Notes under the pieces: generated by a model
Database searches by the model: none
What the model saw: the letters and a program-made list of their open reading frames with translations, nothing else
Told to the model about the DNA's origin: nothing
Made by a program: the position numbers and the translations under genes
In this document: positions 30,634 to 56,909 of the stretch, in pieces
Position numbering within the stretch: the stretch's first letter is position 1
How the letters are laid out: each line of letters starts with the position of its first letter
Assembly (NCBI GenBank): GCA_018650795.1
Contig: JABIFG010000100.1
Span: forward strand, 1 to 64,000
DNA length: 64,000 nucleotides
Direction of reading: 5' to 3'
Origin: Fidelibacterota bacterium
GTDB lineage: Bacteria > Fidelibacterota > UBA8477 > JABMPR01

Positions 30634-30722
30634 CCACAGCAATTTCTAAGTGCAAATATTGAAAAAATCCACCTTCATAATACCCACTCAATTTCAAAAC
30701 TAGTTAGGAATGAGTAAATCTG

Positions 30723-31727
30723 ATTAATCAGACTGATCAACACAGTTCGACCCATGAGACTTTTGAAGTAACTATAGACCACTTCCAAAGACCCGTGCGC
30801 ATTGATAAATTTTTGTCAAGCCGCTTGCCTACGCACATTACTCGGAACCAGGTTCAGAAATTGTTAAAATCTGGCAAGATTCAAGTTGATGGGAAACCAG
30901 TTAAAGCCAGTCATCTCGTAGACTCTGGTGAGCACGTTACTGTAGAATATGATCTACAGTATGCGCCCACACTTTTCGCAGAAAACATTGCTTTAGATAT
31001 CGTATATGAGGATGACTATCTCATCGTTGTGAATAAACAACCCGGACTCATTGTACACCCCGGTGCTGGCAATGCAACCGGTACATTAGTTAATGCCCTG
31101 ATTTACCATTGTGAACATCTCTCCAACGACAACGGACTGCTCCGTCCCGGAATCGTCCATCGTCTGGATAAGGATACCTCCGGTTTGCTTATTTCAGCCA
31201 AAGACAATAGCATTCATGGTAATCTCCGATCTCAGTTTTCAAAACGGACCATCGAAAAATATTACTATGCACTTGTCTGGGGCCGATTTGATGATGACCA
31301 CGGTGAAATCGATGCACCCATCGGCCGCTCTCCAAAGAATCGTAAAAAGTTTACCGTGATTGAGACGGGCAAGCCTGCTTTATCACGCTATGAAGTCATC
31401 GAACGATTCGAATTCCTGACTCTGGTGAGGGTTAAACTCGAAACAGGTCGTACACACCAGATCAGAGTGCATATGACTCATGTTAACCACCCCATTTTTG
31501 GAGATCCATATTATGGTGGGCGTAATTCAAAAATTATCACTTTGAATATGCGTAATAGACAATTAGCAGCTCAACTTCTCGGAATGCTCAATCGTCAGGC
31601 TCTGCACGCTCGGCGCTTGATATTTAATCATCCAATTACTGATGAGACCATGGATTTGCGCGCCCCTATGCATGATGACTTTGAGCAGGTCTTAAGCGTT
31701 CTGAGAGAAGAAAGTCAGTACGCATGA
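30723..31727 (+). CDS. rluD: RluD-type 23S rRNA pseudouridine synthase
   Basis: The enzyme has an N-terminal S4 domain (RIDKFLSSRLPTHITRNQVQKLLKSG) and a catalytic domain with GIVHRLDKDTSGLLISAKD, in which Asp of the RLDKDTSG motif is catalytic, and LETGRTHQIRVHM. It modifies uridines in 23S rRNA helix 69 (RluD) or related sites. The start is unclear. The frame continues upstream of the GTG at 30795 as ETFEVTIDHFQRPV, a normal RluD lead-in, with no ATG, GTG or TTG until the TGA at 30711. Candidates are ATT at 30723 (used here, giving 334 residues), or an ATG at 30710 joined by one lost T near 30724. Its stop overlaps xerC (ATGA at 31724). Confidence 0.8.
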   Translation: MNQTDQHSSTHETFEVTIDHFQRPVRIDKFLSSRLPTHITRNQVQKLLKSGKIQVDGKPVKASHLVDSGEHVTVEYDLQYAPTLFAENIALDIVYEDDYLIVVNKQPGLIVHPGAGNATGTLVNALIYHCEHLSNDNGLLRPGIVHRLDKDTSGLLISAKDNSIHGNLRSQFSKRTIEKYYYALVWGRFDDDHGEIDAPIGRSPKNRKKFTVIETGKPALSRYEVIERFEFLTLVRVKLETGRTHQIRVHMTHVNHPIFGDPYYGGRNSKIITLNMRNRQLAAQLLGMLNRQALHARRLIFNHPITDETMDLRAPMHDDFEQVLSVLREESQYA

Positions 31728-37595: not shown

Positions 37596-37610
37596 AGAAG
37601 GATTAAGCCT

Positions 37611-40580
37611 ATTAATTTTCAGAAAATCAAAGGCAGGTCAGCAGGAATAGTACTGACCATATTGTGGGGTATTCTTGTCCTGCAATGTGATTTTGGACTC
37701 CCTACCAAAGTGGTGTTGCCAACCTGGCAAATGACCCTGACCATTCCCTTAGTTTCTGAAAATTATCCCTTTGATGGACTCCTTGCGTCTGATACAACTG
37801 GGACCATCCAGGTTTATGGTGACTCAGTAGACACAGACGGTGATGGGATCATGGATATCTTGTTGCCCGATACACTGGCTGACTATCCTGGTGGTCTCTA
37901 TATCACCCTGGAGAATGACTTGCCGCCGATCACACTTCCAGAAGATATGTTTGTGATTCCTGGCCAGGATCCCATGGCCCTGGGAGTTGGCCCCATCGAT
38001 ATAGGATCACTCCTCCCGGCGGTTCTAGATACAGGGATTCACATAGGACCAGTGGAAACAGTTATAAATATGACTGATATGGGATTTGACTATCCCCCCT
38101 ACACGAATGATACAATTCCTGCATCAAGATGTGATGATCTAAATGCAAGACGATCTGTGACGGTGAACTTTACTTTTGGTGATGCTGATTCAAATATGAA
38201 TGCTGATCAAGATGTATTGCTACCTGGCTATGTTCATGAAATTGAAGTGAGTGTAGCCAGTACAGAGGATCTGGGTGGATGTACCCCCTGTGGAACTATC
38301 CCCGAAACATATATATGTGATGATACTCTTTTCGTTCCAGCAATTCCAAGTGGTGCAGAAATCACTATTCCTGAGACAATCCTACCAGGAATCAGGGAAG
38401 CTTATGCATTGCTTCCAGATCCTGCAACCCTAGCGCCAGACGTCCCCATCGAAAGTTTTGAATCAGTTAAGATTCTTACTGGATCAATCTCTTCGACGAT
38501 CAACAGTCAATTGCCTTTAACCTCTTCTGATTTAGGACTGCTTGTCTACACAAAAAGTGCTGATGGTAGGCTTGACACACTTCATGATCACCTCTTCGAT
38601 AGCATTTCCGAGTATATGAGAGATGGCGAAGATAGTGTTAAAGTATCCTCACTTGATGGTATAACTCTATTTGACAGTCTCATTTTTGAATTTGGTGGCA
38701 CCATTAATGGCAATAATGGTGATACATTGGAATTCCCGATGGGTGTGAATCCCTTCTTCCACTATAATTTTTCCCTGGATATAGATGGTTTCGAGAGTTT
38801 TCAGATAAATATGCGCGATACCTCCATGTCCATCTATCAGGACATGAATACCACCTCACCAGATGCTGCCTTTAGTGTTCAGATCGTCAAGGCCAAGTTC
38901 AAGGACAATGTGGATGACCCGGATACCAATCGTTTGAGTATCGCTCTTGAAAACCAAATGGGTCTCGATATCGACGTTTTACGCATCAAGCTCAGAAATT
39001 TTTACGCGGATGATGATAGCCTGGCAGCCGGGAGCTATGAAGTATTAGCATTTACACTGCCAGATGGACAGGCTGCTGATACTGTGGTTGTCCTGGATGG
39101 TCATATACTTAGTAACCTCACTGGCGATGATACCCCTCTGGATTCACTCCTCATCGAGACTGAAATCCAATTTAGCTCAGATGGGGGACCAACGACCATC
39201 CCATATCCACCACCAGATGAAATGGCAATCGATGTAAATGTTTTGATGACCTCTCTGAGGATTGCAGATTTGACTGGACTCTTTGATATCAATTTCGGGC
39301 TAAGTAATCAGGAACAACCTCTGAGTTTACCAGGTCTCGTGGGTGGGGTCACATTTGGTGAGGCTATCCTTGCCATCACCATGGAGAATGAGTTTGGGGT
39401 TTCACCAGGCTTAGGTCTTGCGGTGAAAGGCTACAGAGATGGTGACAGCATAGTGGTAGCCCTTGATCCAGATTCGGTAAATTTTCAAGCTGGGGCACCG
39501 GGTGCTCCGGTATCAACTGAGATTCGAATTAGTCGAGATTATGTGAGACGAACCGTTGATGGAGATGCCAGCATTGTCCAGCACTTCCCGGCGGATGACA
39601 ATATTGTCAATCTCATGGCAATGATGCCTGATATCGTTGCTGTAGGTGGGGATGCTCAAATATCGCCTGATGGGCTGACCTCAATCTCAGCTGGAGCCGA
39701 AATTTCAGGAACCTGGCGTTTTGAAATTCCCTTTTATCTAAGCATTGCCGGGGGGGGGGTGGAATTCATGCCTCCAACATTTTCAAAAATGGCTGCTCTG
39801 GATTCCAGCACAATCAAGCAATTGGTGGGTAGCAATGGCATTCCCGATGAATCTGATATGCTTATAAGTTCCACTATCAACACCATCATATTTAGTGATA
39901 TTGGACTTGGTTTTGGACTAGAAATACTGGTTTCAGACTTGCAATATTTCCCATTCTACAGCTCCCTTGAAAACCGTGTGTTGGTGTCTGCTGATCTCGA
40001 TGACGATGGCTCAGCTGATACACTTGATCTGAATCTGGATACACTTATTCTGCATCCCATGGTCAAGACACTTCAGCTTGAGATTCCAGCTGGCACTGTG
40101 GATCCCAGTACAGGTATTGTGATACCTGGGATGGAAGGCTCGGGTCAATTTAGTTATTCTGCAGATTTCAATTTGAACGATGTCATGGGTGACTCCACCT
40201 ACGGTACACTGAAACACAAGCAATATGCCTTTCTGGATACCTTCATGTTGGCCCGTTCTGATTCTGGGTTCGCGGATGTGGCTTCAGCACTCGCCTTTGT
40301 GGAGCTGGATGCACCCACCGTGGCTGATTCACTTTACAATTTGACTCTGAACAGTAGTGGCACAGAATTGTTGCTCATTCAGGATGTTACTGCTTATGGT
40401 GAACTGGGTTGGTTAGTAGAGCCAAAAGATCATTATATAGCCACTAAATTTATTCTCGATGAGACTCCCAACCCTGCCTTGTTACCATTCTCTGCCGGAA
40501 TTGATGTGACCGCCTTTATGCAATTTATTCTGAATTCAGGACCCATGTTCAGCAGCACTGAGGAAGACACTACTCAATGA
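37611..40580 (+). CDS. large exported lipoprotein with probable AUU start and internal G10 tract
   Basis: The 989-residue product has no recognised family. Its body is beta-rich and repetitive in style, with many acidic stretches (DSVDTDGDGIMDI, ILSNLTGDDTPLDSLL). From ATT at 37611 the N-terminus reads MNFQKIKGRSAGIVLTILWGILVLQC: positive n-region, hydrophobic core and lipobox LVLQC (Cys26). GAAGGA lies 8 bases upstream of the ATT. The alternatives, CTG at 37653 and TTG at 37662, leave 11 or 8 residues before Cys with no positive charge, and no ATG, GTG or TTG occurs before the TAG at 37593. The stop overlaps the DUF5723 start (ATGA), suggesting a paired surface system. G10 at 39750-39759 codes for residues around 714-717. 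Confidence 0.7.
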   Translation: MNFQKIKGRSAGIVLTILWGILVLQCDFGLPTKVVLPTWQMTLTIPLVSENYPFDGLLASDTTGTIQVYGDSVDTDGDGIMDILLPDTLADYPGGLYITLENDLPPITLPEDMFVIPGQDPMALGVGPIDIGSLLPAVLDTGIHIGPVETVINMTDMGFDYPPYTNDTIPASRCDDLNARRSVTVNFTFGDADSNMNADQDVLLPGYVHEIEVSVASTEDLGGCTPCGTIPETYICDDTLFVPAIPSGAEITIPETILPGIREAYALLPDPATLAPDVPIESFESVKILTGSISSTINSQLPLTSSDLGLLVYTKSADGRLDTLHDHLFDSISEYMRDGEDSVKVSSLDGITLFDSLIFEFGGTINGNNGDTLEFPMGVNPFFHYNFSLDIDGFESFQINMRDTSMSIYQDMNTTSPDAAFSVQIVKAKFKDNVDDPDTNRLSIALENQMGLDIDVLRIKLRNFYADDDSLAAGSYEVLAFTLPDGQAADTVVVLDGHILSNLTGDDTPLDSLLIETEIQFSSDGGPTTIPYPPPDEMAIDVNVLMTSLRIADLTGLFDINFGLSNQEQPLSLPGLVGGVTFGEAILAITMENEFGVSPGLGLAVKGYRDGDSIVVALDPDSVNFQAGAPGAPVSTEIRISRDYVRRTVDGDASIVQHFPADDNIVNLMAMMPDIVAVGGDAQISPDGLTSISAGAEISGTWRFEIPFYLSIAGGGVEFMPPTFSKMAALDSSTIKQLVGSNGIPDESDMLISSTINTIIFSDIGLGFGLEILVSDLQYFPFYSSLENRVLVSADLDDDGSADTLDLNLDTLILHPMVKTLQLEIPAGTVDPSTGIVIPGMEGSGQFSYSADFNLNDVMGDSTYGTLKHKQYAFLDTFMLARSDSGFADVASALAFVELDAPTVADSLYNLTLNSSGTELLLIQDVTAYGELGWLVEPKDHYIATKFILDETPNPALLPFSAGIDVTAFMQFILNSGPMFSSTEEDTTQ
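39750..39759 (+). repeat. G10 homopolymer within the large lipoprotein gene
   Basis: Ten consecutive G occupy 39750-39759 in the reading frame Ala-Gly-Gly-Gly-Val, about 72% of the way through the gene. It is the longest G or C run I noticed in the window. Poly-G runs of 8-12 are the classic slippage switches of surface-protein genes. Confidence 0.85.
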
Positions 40581-54709: not shown

Positions 54710-55627
54710 CTATAGTCCCGGTGTGCGATAATTCTCCAGAATGAACGACTTCTTGTATTTTGAAGTCTTTACCAGCTTCCCGTCCTGGTTATAAATATGA
54801 ATAAATTTTGGTTGGTGTTTATCATTATACTCATAAACCGTTTTCTTAATCAGTTCGAGTTGTCGATCTTTTTCCACCTCGACAAGAAGATGTCCGTATT
54901 CGTCATATTTTCGAGAAATGAATACTCCACGATCTTCATCCAATATTTCTTCATGTTCGCGGTAACTTTTTACAGGGTGATAACTATATCTGTAAAAAGC
55001 GATGAGTGAATTGTCTGGTAGGTAGCGCTCCTCATTCACAATCTGGATTTCATCATTATACAAGGTTAACCAGTAATCTCTCAGTTCCCCACTGGGGAGA
55101 AAGAAATTGCGTCTTGATTTATCGAGACGATGTTTATAGTCGTAGTGATATTCAGTTGAGCTTTCAATCTTATGACCCAACCCCAGAGTTTCTTCAAGAT
55201 AAGCTTTTTGATTCGCATCGTAATAGATGATCATTTTCTTTTCCAGCGAGTGAGCCCGGGAGAACCACTGTTCTTCTCGTTTTATCACCCGACCTTTTTC
55301 GTAATGCCATTCTCGTGTGATTCTTGGCGAGCCACTGTCAAATAATTCGGTGCGTTTAAGTCGAAGCAACATTCCTTTTCGAGTGTAGGTATAACTGCTT
55401 TTTTCAACAAGCATTTTTCCGGTAGAGTAATATTTGGCTGCGGTAATCTGCCCCTTGTCATTGCGTTTCACTTCGAAATAATCACCTCGAATTGAGCTAC
55501 GATCCCGAATATGATTCAGAAATTGGGGGGTTTGAAGATCACCATTCTTGTAATAGGAAATTTTACCTCCGCTGCATGCGCTGATGAGCAGGGTAATTAA
55601 AACTATATTGGAAAGTTTGATGATCAC
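54710..55627 (-). CDS. lipoprotein with YwqK-like repeats, unknown function
   Basis: The 305-residue protein has a short lipoprotein signal (LSNIVLITLLISACSGG; lipobox ISAC, Cys at 18). Its mature part is made of repeated strand pairs of the form Y-x-G-x-h-x-h (KYYSTGKMLVEKSSYTYTRKGMLLRLKRT, YDEYGHLLVEVEKD, YNDKHQPKFIHIYNQDGKLV), resembling YwqK/toRAST-like beta repeats, a fold found in many outer-membrane lipoproteins. I assign no function. It is coupled by ATGA to the coiled-coil gene upstream. Confidence 0.7.
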   Translation of the reverse strand: MIIKLSNIVLITLLISACSGGKISYYKNGDLQTPQFLNHIRDRSSIRGDYFEVKRNDKGQITAAKYYSTGKMLVEKSSYTYTRKGMLLRLKRTELFDSGSPRITREWHYEKGRVIKREEQWFSRAHSLEKKMIIYYDANQKAYLEETLGLGHKIESSTEYHYDYKHRLDKSRRNFFLPSGELRDYWLTLYNDEIQIVNEERYLPDNSLIAFYRYSYHPVKSYREHEEILDEDRGVFISRKYDEYGHLLVEVEKDRQLELIKKTVYEYNDKHQPKFIHIYNQDGKLVKTSKYKKSFILENYRTPGL

Positions 55628-56304
55628 TTGGTGAACAGATAAAAGTAGATAGCTGATCGACGGGCATCCACGAGTTCAACCTTATCAGAGCTAACAATTT
55701 CGTCTGCGATATCATATAGCTCGTAACGAGAATCTTTTTCCAAACCCTGATAAAATCCAAGAACCTGTTCACTTGAAAGTGCATCAATGGTAATCAGACG
55801 GGCCTGGTCCAAAGACTTACCCTCACGAACCAACTTTACGGCTGATAAATCTATTGAGCGGGCACTTATCACTTGAGTCACATCAGTAGAATCAGACGAA
55901 GCTTCCTGGTTTACTGTTGGCTTCACTACCCTGGCTTGCTGCATTTTTTTGGCGAGGGCATAACGCTTACCGGGGTCCTCTAATTGTTTGCTGATCTCGA
56001 TAATATCTAATGTGATTTGATCAATTCTAGCCCGGGATTCGGCCTGTTTTTTGCGCAAGCGAATCAATCTCAAGCTATCACGCTTGTCAAAGTCAACATG
56101 GGGTGATTTCAATTCGGCTCCAAGCTGATATGAATGAGATTGCTCTGCCTTAAGTTTTGCCACCATCTCGCTGAGCTTGTCAATCTGTCGATGTAATGTT
56201 TTTACGTCAGAATCCTTCGGTTGTGACAAGGCAAACAACGGTGAAAGCATTATAATTACCAGTAAAATCGATTTGATGATATTACTCCTATTCATATTTA
56301 GCAT
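55624..56304 (-). CDS. exported coiled-coil protein, unknown function
   Basis: The 226-residue protein begins MLNMNRSNIIKSILLVIIMLSPLFALSQ, a signal peptide, then a long charged coiled coil (about 35-130: LHRQIDKLSEMVAKLKAEQ, RLRKKQAESRARIDQITLDIIEISKQL). The C-terminal 80 residues form a small folded unit (VKLVREGKSLDQARLITIDALSSEQVLGFYQGL). Its stop overlaps the downstream lipoprotein start by four bases (ATGA), so the pair is coupled and may interact. GAGGAG is 9 bases before the ATG. It matches no family I know. Confidence 0.7.
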   Translation of the reverse strand: MLNMNRSNIIKSILLVIIMLSPLFALSQPKDSDVKTLHRQIDKLSEMVAKLKAEQSHSYQLGAELKSPHVDFDKRDSLRLIRLRKKQAESRARIDQITLDIIEISKQLEDPGKRYALAKKMQQARVVKPTVNQEASSDSTDVTQVISARSIDLSAVKLVREGKSLDQARLITIDALSSEQVLGFYQGLEKDSRYELYDIADEIVSSDKVELVDARRSAIYFYLFTK

Positions 56305-56388: not shown

Positions 56389-56829
56389 TCAGAGGAGCTG
56401 CTTTTCATACCAGTATTTGACTTCACCCTGTTCAGGGGCAGTCTTTATTAGGGAATAATGGTTATTTTTCCCCAGATTTATCATAGCGGGGAATCGATTG
56501 AAGGTAGTGAAGTATATTTGTGTAATCCCCAGTGTTCTGACATGCTGCTCCTGCTTCTCAAGTAGCGCTTGTGCAATACCTTGCCGACGATAATCCTCGT
56601 GGACGCCACCCAACCAGGAAAAGAAGCTTTGCTTATTCTCAATGACATATCCCAGTTTAAAGCCGACTGGAACCACTCCATCATAGGCTATCAATAGGAG
56701 AGCTTGCTGTTTTCGAATTTGCTCCAGTTTTTGTTCAGTCGCTCGACTCTTCGCAAATATCATTTTTTCAAGCGAAACAACAGTATGGAGCTCAACATCA
56801 GCAGGGCGTATTTCAATCTGGATCGAAAT
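56389..56829 (-). CDS. GNAT-family N-acetyltransferase with probable AUU start
   Basis: The 146-residue protein has the GNAT core: acceptor region LLLIAYDGVVPVGFKLGYV, the acetyl-CoA loop VHEDYRRQGIAQALLEKQEQHV (R/QxxGxA form) and the terminal YWYEKQLL strand. The ATG at 56763 would delete the first beta strand, and no ribosome site precedes it. The frame runs upstream as IEIRPADVELHTVVSLEKMIF, a standard GNAT beginning, with no ATG, GTG or TTG back to the TAG at 56777's frame end near 56877. ATT at 56829 lies 8 bases after a strong AAAGGAG (56844-56838), giving MSIQIEIRPAD. The acetyl acceptor is unknown. It is 84 bp upstream of the coiled-coil gene. Confidence 0.75.
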   Translation of the reverse strand: MSIQIEIRPADVELHTVVSLEKMIFAKSRATEQKLEQIRKQQALLLIAYDGVVPVGFKLGYVIENKQSFFSWLGGVHEDYRRQGIAQALLEKQEQHVRTLGITQIYFTTFNRFPAMINLGKNNHYSLIKTAPEQGEVKYWYEKQLL

Positions 56830-56909
56830 TTGGTATACTCCTTTAATAATTGCTAATGTGAAAAAAGACTTACCCTATTCACATTTCCATCTAAATTTAG
56901 ACTTCAGTT

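What the first reader, a model, noticed from the sequence alone, without database searches (positions are those of the whole stretch)
56763..56844. GNAT gene appears to start at AUU behind a near-perfect ribosome site
On the minus strand AAAGGAG sits exactly 8 bases before ATT at 56829, and the frame from there supplies the first GNAT strand (IEIRPAD...) that the only ATG (56763) would remove. No ATG, GTG or TTG exists in between. This is an independent second case of the pattern at 37611.
Basis: partly seen in the sequence, partly recalled or inferred. Interest (0 to 1): 0.5.

Follow-up and report, generated by a model that had tools for sequence, protein, structure and literature searches.

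The report
Acetyltransferase gene starting at AUU
A bacterial acetyltransferase gene appears to begin at the unusual codon AUU instead of AUG, and the 19 species of its genus that were examined all keep AUU, AUA or AUC there, which suggests a weak start signal that keeps this protein scarce.

Summary
On the minus strand AAAGGAG (56844-56838) lies 8 nt before ATT 56829; the frame has no ATG, GTG or TTG before Met23 (56763). All 19 genomes of the genus (own included) encode the gene, with AUU (11), AUA (5) or AUC (3) at the corresponding codon and a Shine-Dalgarno tetramer 6-9 nt upstream; three are placed with a one-codon shift. None has AUG, GUG or UUG there. Four have an in-frame stop directly before AUU. 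In seven close species protein-type substitution begins right after it. A structure model puts the first GNAT strand and most of the first helix in the stretch an AUG start would remove.

The case is not isolated: in most or all genus members found, infC (AUC), ruvC (CUG), an RluA-family synthase (CUG) and the gene at 37611 (AUU/AUC/AUA) also have non-canonical starts.

Best mechanism (inferred): weak, SD-dependent initiation disfavoured by IF3, as known for infC, Streptomyces sigR and staphylococcal cvfC1/ccpN. This is a new member of a known kind. Low output and IF3 dependence are untested.

The parts
56392..56829 (-). GNAT N-acetyltransferase coding sequence, 146 codons, AUU start at 56829-56827 (stop TGA 56391-56389)
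   Evidence: Pfam GNAT families above gathering score; 19 of 19 genus members share the start position within one codon
56838..56844 (-). Shine-Dalgarno sequence AAAGGAG, 8 nt before AUU
   Evidence: an SD tetramer 6-9 nt before the codon in 19 of 19 genus members
56761..56763 (-). first in-frame ATG; read as an internal methionine (Met23 of ..LEKMIF..), not the start
   Evidence: a canonical codon at this column in 14 of 19 genomes, none with an SD tetramer 6-9 nt upstream
56890..56901 (.). palindrome TCTAAATTTAGA in the divergent intergenic region shared with the DUF3667 gene; exact in 15 of 19 genus members; probable operator or promoter element, role unknown
37611..40577 (+). second gene with an AUU start (989 codons from AUU, 994-codon open frame; lipoprotein-like N-terminus, no family found); AAGGA 37598-37602, 8 nt before ATT
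   Evidence: AUU/AUC/AUA in 16 of 18 genus members found; no family
30720..31724 (+). RluA-family pseudouridine synthase with an apparent CUG start (AGGA 30706-30709, 10 nt before CTG)
   Evidence: CTG in 17 of 17 genus members found, with an in-frame stop 3-5 codons upstream and varying neighbours; family

Best explanation
The GNAT gene is translated from AUU at 56829. A strong SD positions the 30S subunit and fMet-tRNA pairs imperfectly with AUU. IF3, which destabilises such complexes, keeps initiation weak, so the acetyltransferase is made at a low level that may rise when free IF3 falls. The non-canonical start is kept across the genus, moving among AUU, AUA and AUC. Shown here: start position, SD, conservation, coding boundary, consistency with the fold. 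Inferred from work on infC, sigR, cvfC1 and ccpN: low efficiency and IF3 control. The acetylated substrate is unknown; it is a generic GNAT, not RimI by score. The confidence given is for initiation at AUU with weak, SD-dependent output; selection for that weakness and IF3 control are less certain.
For: 19 of 19 genus genomes: AUU 11, AUA 5, AUC 3, each with an SD tetramer 6-9 nt upstream. In-frame stop directly before AUU in 4 (L005, L007, L008, L010); no canonical start upstream in frame in 10 of 19. Among 7 close species differences at codon positions 1/2/3 are 98/90/205 for codons 2-22 and 66/12/18 for the 66 nt before AUU. Parsimony needs at least 6 codon changes over 20 tips, the outgroup's AUG included. 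Structure model, mean pLDDT 78.4: strand 3-9, helix 14-25; the 50 Foldseek rows shown are acetyltransferases. Same genus: infC AUC in 15 of 15 found, ruvC CUG in 18 of 18 found, RluA-family gene CUG in 17 of 17 found. Precedents: PMC5472188 (passages) and PMC13009471 (passages; about 10% of AUG reporter output in poor medium).
Against: No transcript, ribosome-profiling or peptide data. In 9 of 19 genomes an in-frame ATG, GTG or TTG lies upstream, so in those species alone a canonical start is possible, though none has an SD. Many genes here seem to start without an SD (181 of 308 orthologue pairs showed no aligned codon with an SD in both genomes), so lack of an SD does not exclude a start. 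Ile is also frequent at codons +4 and +6 (AUH in 14 and 17 of 19), so part of the conservation could be of the residue; in the sister-genus genome G019 the aligned column also reads ATT, without an SD, with ATG two codons further on. The model rests on two sequences and has block pLDDT 65-67 over residues 11-40. The IF3 position aligned with the reference KLR arginine is not Arg in the genus but is also not Arg in 15 of 18 other phylum genomes aligned, and the initiator tRNA looks ordinary, so nothing singles out the genus's initiation machinery.
Confidence: 0.85

Rival explanations
1. AUU is the start, but only tolerated: near-cognate starts drift in because little product is needed, with no selection for regulation. 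(Shares the AUU start with the best explanation and disputes only the selection and IF3 part, so the two confidences overlap.)
For: Several unrelated genes have near-cognate starts (weaker case in 72); in a few species one of these genes has AUG (37611 gene in G003; signal-peptide gene in G006 and G005). With few inferred codon changes, absence of AUG alone is weak statistics.
Against: CUG of ruvC in 18 of 18 genus genomes found and in the sister-genus genome, CUG of the RluA-family gene in 17 of 17, AUH of GNAT in 19 of 19; drift would be expected to return to AUG often, and AUG-to-AUU switches are rare elsewhere (1 of 61,358 ancestral AUG starts, PMC5622118 passage).
Confidence: 0.35
2. Start at the internal ATG 56763; the upstream conservation is regulatory DNA or RNA.
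For: It is the first canonical start in the window's own frame; a canonical codon stands at this column in 14 of 19 genomes.
Against: No SD tetramer 6-9 nt before it in any of 19 (some have GGA at 4 nt); position-3-biased substitution upstream of it; loss of beta-1 and most of alpha-1.
Confidence: 0.03
3. Start at an upstream in-frame canonical codon, or an upstream mini-ORF with reinitiation or readthrough into the gene.
For: ATGGAG..TAA directly precedes ATT in four species; ATG or TTG at -5 in three others.
Against: That ATG overlaps the SD, has no SD of its own and is absent from most species, including the window's, whereas an SD and AUH are present in all 19.
Confidence: 0.05
4. Sequencing or assembly error, or a decayed pseudogene.
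Against: The same codon class in 19 genomes; no inner stops in any of the 45 listed matches.
Confidence: 0.01

Closest known systems
infC (IF3): ATT in E. coli, ATC in Streptomyces (PMC5472188 passage), AUA in S. aureus (PMC13009471 passage)
   Same: AUH start, SD close by; this genus's own infC has ATC at the place in 15 of 15 loci found
   Different: infC encodes IF3 itself, so autoregulation; the GNAT has no known link to initiation
sigR of Streptomyces (GTC start, IF3-repressed; PMC5472188, passages read)
   Same: non-infC gene with a conserved non-canonical start and an extensive SD, misannotated by gene finders
   Different: GTC/GTT rather than AUH; IF3 control was shown experimentally there
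cvfC1 (AUU) and ccpN (AUA) of Staphylococcus (PMC13009471, passages read)
   Same: conserved AUU/AUA starts with strong SD
   Different: initiation there was mapped by Ribo-Ret and reporters (about 10% of AUG in poor medium, up to 30% for ccpN in rich medium); a small protein and a repressor, not a GNAT
pcnB of E. coli (AUU; title of Binns and Masters seen in a reference list; content recalled)
   Same: AUU start said to limit expression
   Different: different enzyme; conservation not examined here

Membership tests
Genes with a conserved non-canonical (IF3-disfavoured) start codon | coding sequence begins at a codon other than AUG/GUG/UUG | tested here: met
   by comparative sequence only:
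Genes with a conserved non-canonical (IF3-disfavoured) start codon | the non-canonical codon is conserved between species | tested here: met
   AUU 11, AUA 5, AUC 3 of 19; in the one sister-genus genome and two f2 genomes an ATG is available nearby
Genes with a conserved non-canonical (IF3-disfavoured) start codon | strong, well-spaced SD | tested here: met
   SD tetramer 6-9 nt upstream in 19 of 19
Genes with a conserved non-canonical (IF3-disfavoured) start codon | lower output than with AUG | not testable with these tools
   needs reporters
Genes with a conserved non-canonical (IF3-disfavoured) start codon | repression by IF3 | not testable with these tools
   needs IF3 titration or fidelity mutants
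GNAT N-acetyltransferase superfamily | GNAT profile above curated cut-off | tested here: met
   PF00583 35.6 bits vs 20.7 and three other GNAT families above theirs
GNAT N-acetyltransferase superfamily | GNAT fold with beta-1/alpha-1 at the N-terminus | tested here: met
   model from two sequences, mean pLDDT 78.4, and Foldseek
RimI (S18-alanine acetyltransferase) | TIGR01575 cut-off 86.4 bits | tested here: not met
   29.8 bits
GNAT toxin of a toxin-antitoxin pair or defence system | defence model match or a partner antitoxin gene alongside | tested here: inconclusive
   no PADLOC match for the gene or its two neighbours; the neighbours are DUF3667 and a protein without a Pfam family; toxin-antitoxin profiles as such were not searched

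The most novel reading that the evidence does not exclude
In this order a scattered set of genes (infC, ruvC, an RluA-family synthase, this GNAT, the 989-codon gene at 37611, perhaps a signal-peptide protein) keeps non-canonical starts by selection and forms an IF3-governed translational regulon: a shift in free IF3 would change all of them together, tying RNA modification, Holliday-junction resolution and acetylation to initiation capacity.
Probability: 0.2. Interest if true: 0.75.

Novelty: new member of a known kind. Interest (0 to 1): 0.5.

Why it matters
Gene callers that allow only ATG, GTG and TTG would miss or misplace such starts; here that would cut the first strand and most of the first helix from a GNAT and misplace ruvC, infC and a pseudouridine synthase across a genus. 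Start codons that stay AUU/AUA/AUC or CUG across many species make it testable whether weak starts are selected for and whether IF3 controls a set of genes beyond its own.

Tried and rejected
A type-agnostic start tally with codon-usage scores on G012 stretches was too noisy and was dropped. The SD-plus-coding tally in G012 (397 of 841 ORFs gave a best SD site, of which 37 were ATT/ATC/ATA/CTG) was useful only for picking candidates; ordinary codons such as AAA also scored high.

An IF3 peculiarity as the cause: the position aligned with the KLR arginine (Arg112 by my recall of E. coli numbering) is N, S, T or G in the 14 genus members aligned, but is also not Arg in 15 of the 18 other phylum genomes aligned, so it is no explanation. 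A changed initiator tRNA: the tRNA-Met gene of G000 has GGG/CCC in the anticodon stem, and the 39-nt stretch searched is identical in the 7 genomes matched, of 9 searched. A known RNA element upstream: no Rfam match in 4 loci at gathering scores; single-sequence folds of 5 loci showed no shared structure by eye. TCTAAATTTAGA as a regulon motif: present at the GNAT/DUF3667 intergenic in the 5 genomes whose region was held as a stretch, and at one other place in 1.27 Mb of G012 plus 0.87 Mb of other stretches.

A SpoU-type methyltransferase candidate with AUC was rejected as a conserved case: of 17 loci read (19 rows returned, two pieces of G005 not read) 16 have ATG, GTG or TTG at or next to the place and only G012 lacks one. 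A PDB sequence search with the GNAT gave only weak hits (best E 0.03). infC starts outside the genus were printed for 30 loci but not tabulated.

Full report
OBSERVATION. The sequence is as described: AAAGGAG at 56844-56838 on the minus strand, 8 nt, then ATT 56829-56827 in frame with the GNAT; no ATG, GTG or TTG between the in-frame TAG (56877-56875) and ATG 56763, which is codon 23. Four Pfam GNAT families score above their cut-offs. Against NCBIfam the best is rimI, 29.8 bits against a cut-off of 86.4, so it is not RimI by that test. PADLOC gives no match for it or its two neighbours.

RELATIVES. Of 149 related genomes searched, 45 carry a match at E <= 1e-10, including all 19 of the window's genus, own genome included. 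I read the upstream DNA of the 19 genus loci, of one sister-genus genome (G019) and of two genomes of another family in the order (G020, G021). Eight more distant loci (L024-L031) were printed but not resolved for starts, and the remaining 15 matches, G022 among them, received no locus.

START CODON. Measured from the F of MIF, the codon at -24 (16 genomes), -23 (G011, G002) or -25 (G003) is AUU in 11, AUA in 5 and AUC in 3, always with GGAG, GAGG, AGGA or AAGG 6-9 nt upstream. The shifts in those three genomes were accepted because the SD-spaced AUH codon is there. No genome has AUG, GUG or UUG at the place. Over in-frame columns -8 to +22 no other column has a start-like codon with such an SD in more than 2 of 19. 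Upstream in-frame canonical codons exist in 9 of 19 (ATG in four, TTG in four, GTG in one), none with an SD found; 10 of 19 have none, and four (L005, L007, L008, L010) have TAA directly before ATT. Downstream, one TTG in G014 (at -8 from F) has AAGG at 5 nt, and several ATG at -2 have only GGA at 4 nt. So a canonical start upstream is impossible in 10 species and poorly supported in the rest. In the sister-genus genome G019 the aligned column also reads ATT, without an SD, and ATG follows two codons on; the two f2 genomes have ATG at -29/-25 and at -21.

CODING BOUNDARY. In seven close species the differences summed over species pairs at codon positions 1, 2, 3 are 98, 90, 205 for codons 2-22, and 66, 12, 18 for the 66 nt before AUU: protein-type change begins just after AUU. 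AlphaFold2 on the window protein plus L001 (two sequences) gave mean pLDDT 78.4, with 75 for residues 1-10 and 65-67 for the blocks over 11-40, strand 3-9 and helix 14-25; Foldseek's best hits are GNAT structures, RimI among them. Starting at Met23 would delete the strand and most of the helix.

EVOLUTION. On a tree from four proteins of 20 genomes, rooted on the sister genus and with weak support at some nodes, the codon needs at least 6 changes including the outgroup's AUG. With so few changes the absence of AUG in the genus is not strong statistics by itself. The wider point is that AUG starts are normally under purifying selection and AUG-to-AUU switches are rare: 1 of 61,358 ancestral AUG starts in PMC5622118 (passage).

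NOT ALONE. The same genus shows, by my reading of the printed codons: infC with ATC at the place in 15 of 15 loci found (19 genomes searched; G015 also has an in-frame GTG upstream); the gene at 37611 with AUU (6), AUC (9) or AUA (1) in 16 of 18 loci found (19 searched), AUG in G003, ambiguous AUG-AUC in G014, and canonical codons further upstream in frame in a few; an RluA-family synthase (window 30720; above the RluA-subfamily cut-off but below the RluD equivalog cut-off) with CTG in 17 of 17 loci found (19 searched), an in-frame stop a few codons upstream, varying neighbours and AGGA upstream, 10 nt away in the window, which is a long spacing; ruvC with CTG in 18 of 18 genus loci found (19 genus genomes searched over two calls), an in-frame stop two codons upstream, and CTG also in the sister-genus genome and in two of three f2 genomes (G021 gave no match; the f2 frames upstream were not fully checked). 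A weaker case is a signal-peptide protein with CTG at one place in 8 of 10 loci found (19 searched), GGAG 5 nt upstream in 6 of those 8, but with other canonical codons a few codons away in several and ATG instead in G006 and G005. Outside the genus the RluA-family gene has TTG available in the three f2 genomes and ATG in G019 near the place. In the window three of 57 comparative gene models are of this kind (a few of the 57 may not be genes). In a set of 173 G012 ORFs with an orthologue in other stretches, 52 were flagged by a loose filter and by my reading only these three are clear. A coding-potential scan of 840 G012 ORFs flagged 26: ruvC and infC were confirmed with relatives, the signal-peptide gene is the weaker case above, a SpoU gene was rejected as not conserved, and 22 were not followed; that scan missed the GNAT itself, so it undercounts.

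MECHANISM. SD-directed, imperfectly paired initiation limited by IF3 is the standard reading of such starts: E. coli and Streptomyces infC and the Streptomyces sigR GTC start (PMC5472188, passages); S. aureus infC AUA and the conserved cvfC1 AUU and ccpN AUA, with about 10% of the AUG reporter level in poor medium and up to 30% for ccpN in rich medium (PMC13009471, passages). I infer the same here. IF3 and initiator tRNA show no genus-specific oddity that I could tie to it. A rival that I cannot exclude is simple tolerance of weak starts for genes needing little product.

KNOWN OR NEW. The phenomenon is known; the GNAT case, and the set found in this genus, I did not find in print in the searches made, which cover open-licence papers only and of which I saw listings, plus passages of PMC5472188, PMC13009471, PMC5622118 and PMC11497404.

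Noticed in passing
window 30706-30722 (+): RluA-family pseudouridine synthase with an apparent CUG start, CTG in 17 of 17 genus loci found; in the window's genome an out-of-frame ATG mini-ORF (ATG AGT AAA TCT GAT TAA) overlaps it.
   Followed up: partly
G000:C98 (L241), L233-L246, L298-L302: ruvC starts at CTG two codons behind an in-frame stop in 18 of 18 genus loci found, and CTG is also present in the sister-genus genome: a deeply kept CUG start.
   Followed up: yes
window 37598-37613 (+): Second AUU-start gene (989 codons from AUU, lipoprotein-like N-terminus, no Pfam or NCBIfam family), 15 nt after the upstream gene's stop codon.
   Followed up: partly
window 56860-56905: Well conserved divergent intergenic stretch (AGTCTAAATTTAGATGGAAA ... 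GGGTAAGTCTTTTTTC) between the GNAT and the DUF3667 gene; its palindrome is almost unique in the stretches held.
   Followed up: partly
L272-L280, e.g. G012:C14 near 55559-55678: Signal-peptide protein with CTG at one conserved place in 8 of 10 genus loci found, GGAG 5 nt upstream in 6 of those 8; canonical codons nearby in several leave it open.
   Followed up: partly
G012 stretches L052-L071, L105-L110, L125-L164 against the other stretches: 181 of 308 orthologue pairs showed no aligned codon with an SD in both genomes, so many genes here may start without an SD, whereas the near-cognate genes seen here mostly have one.
   Followed up: no
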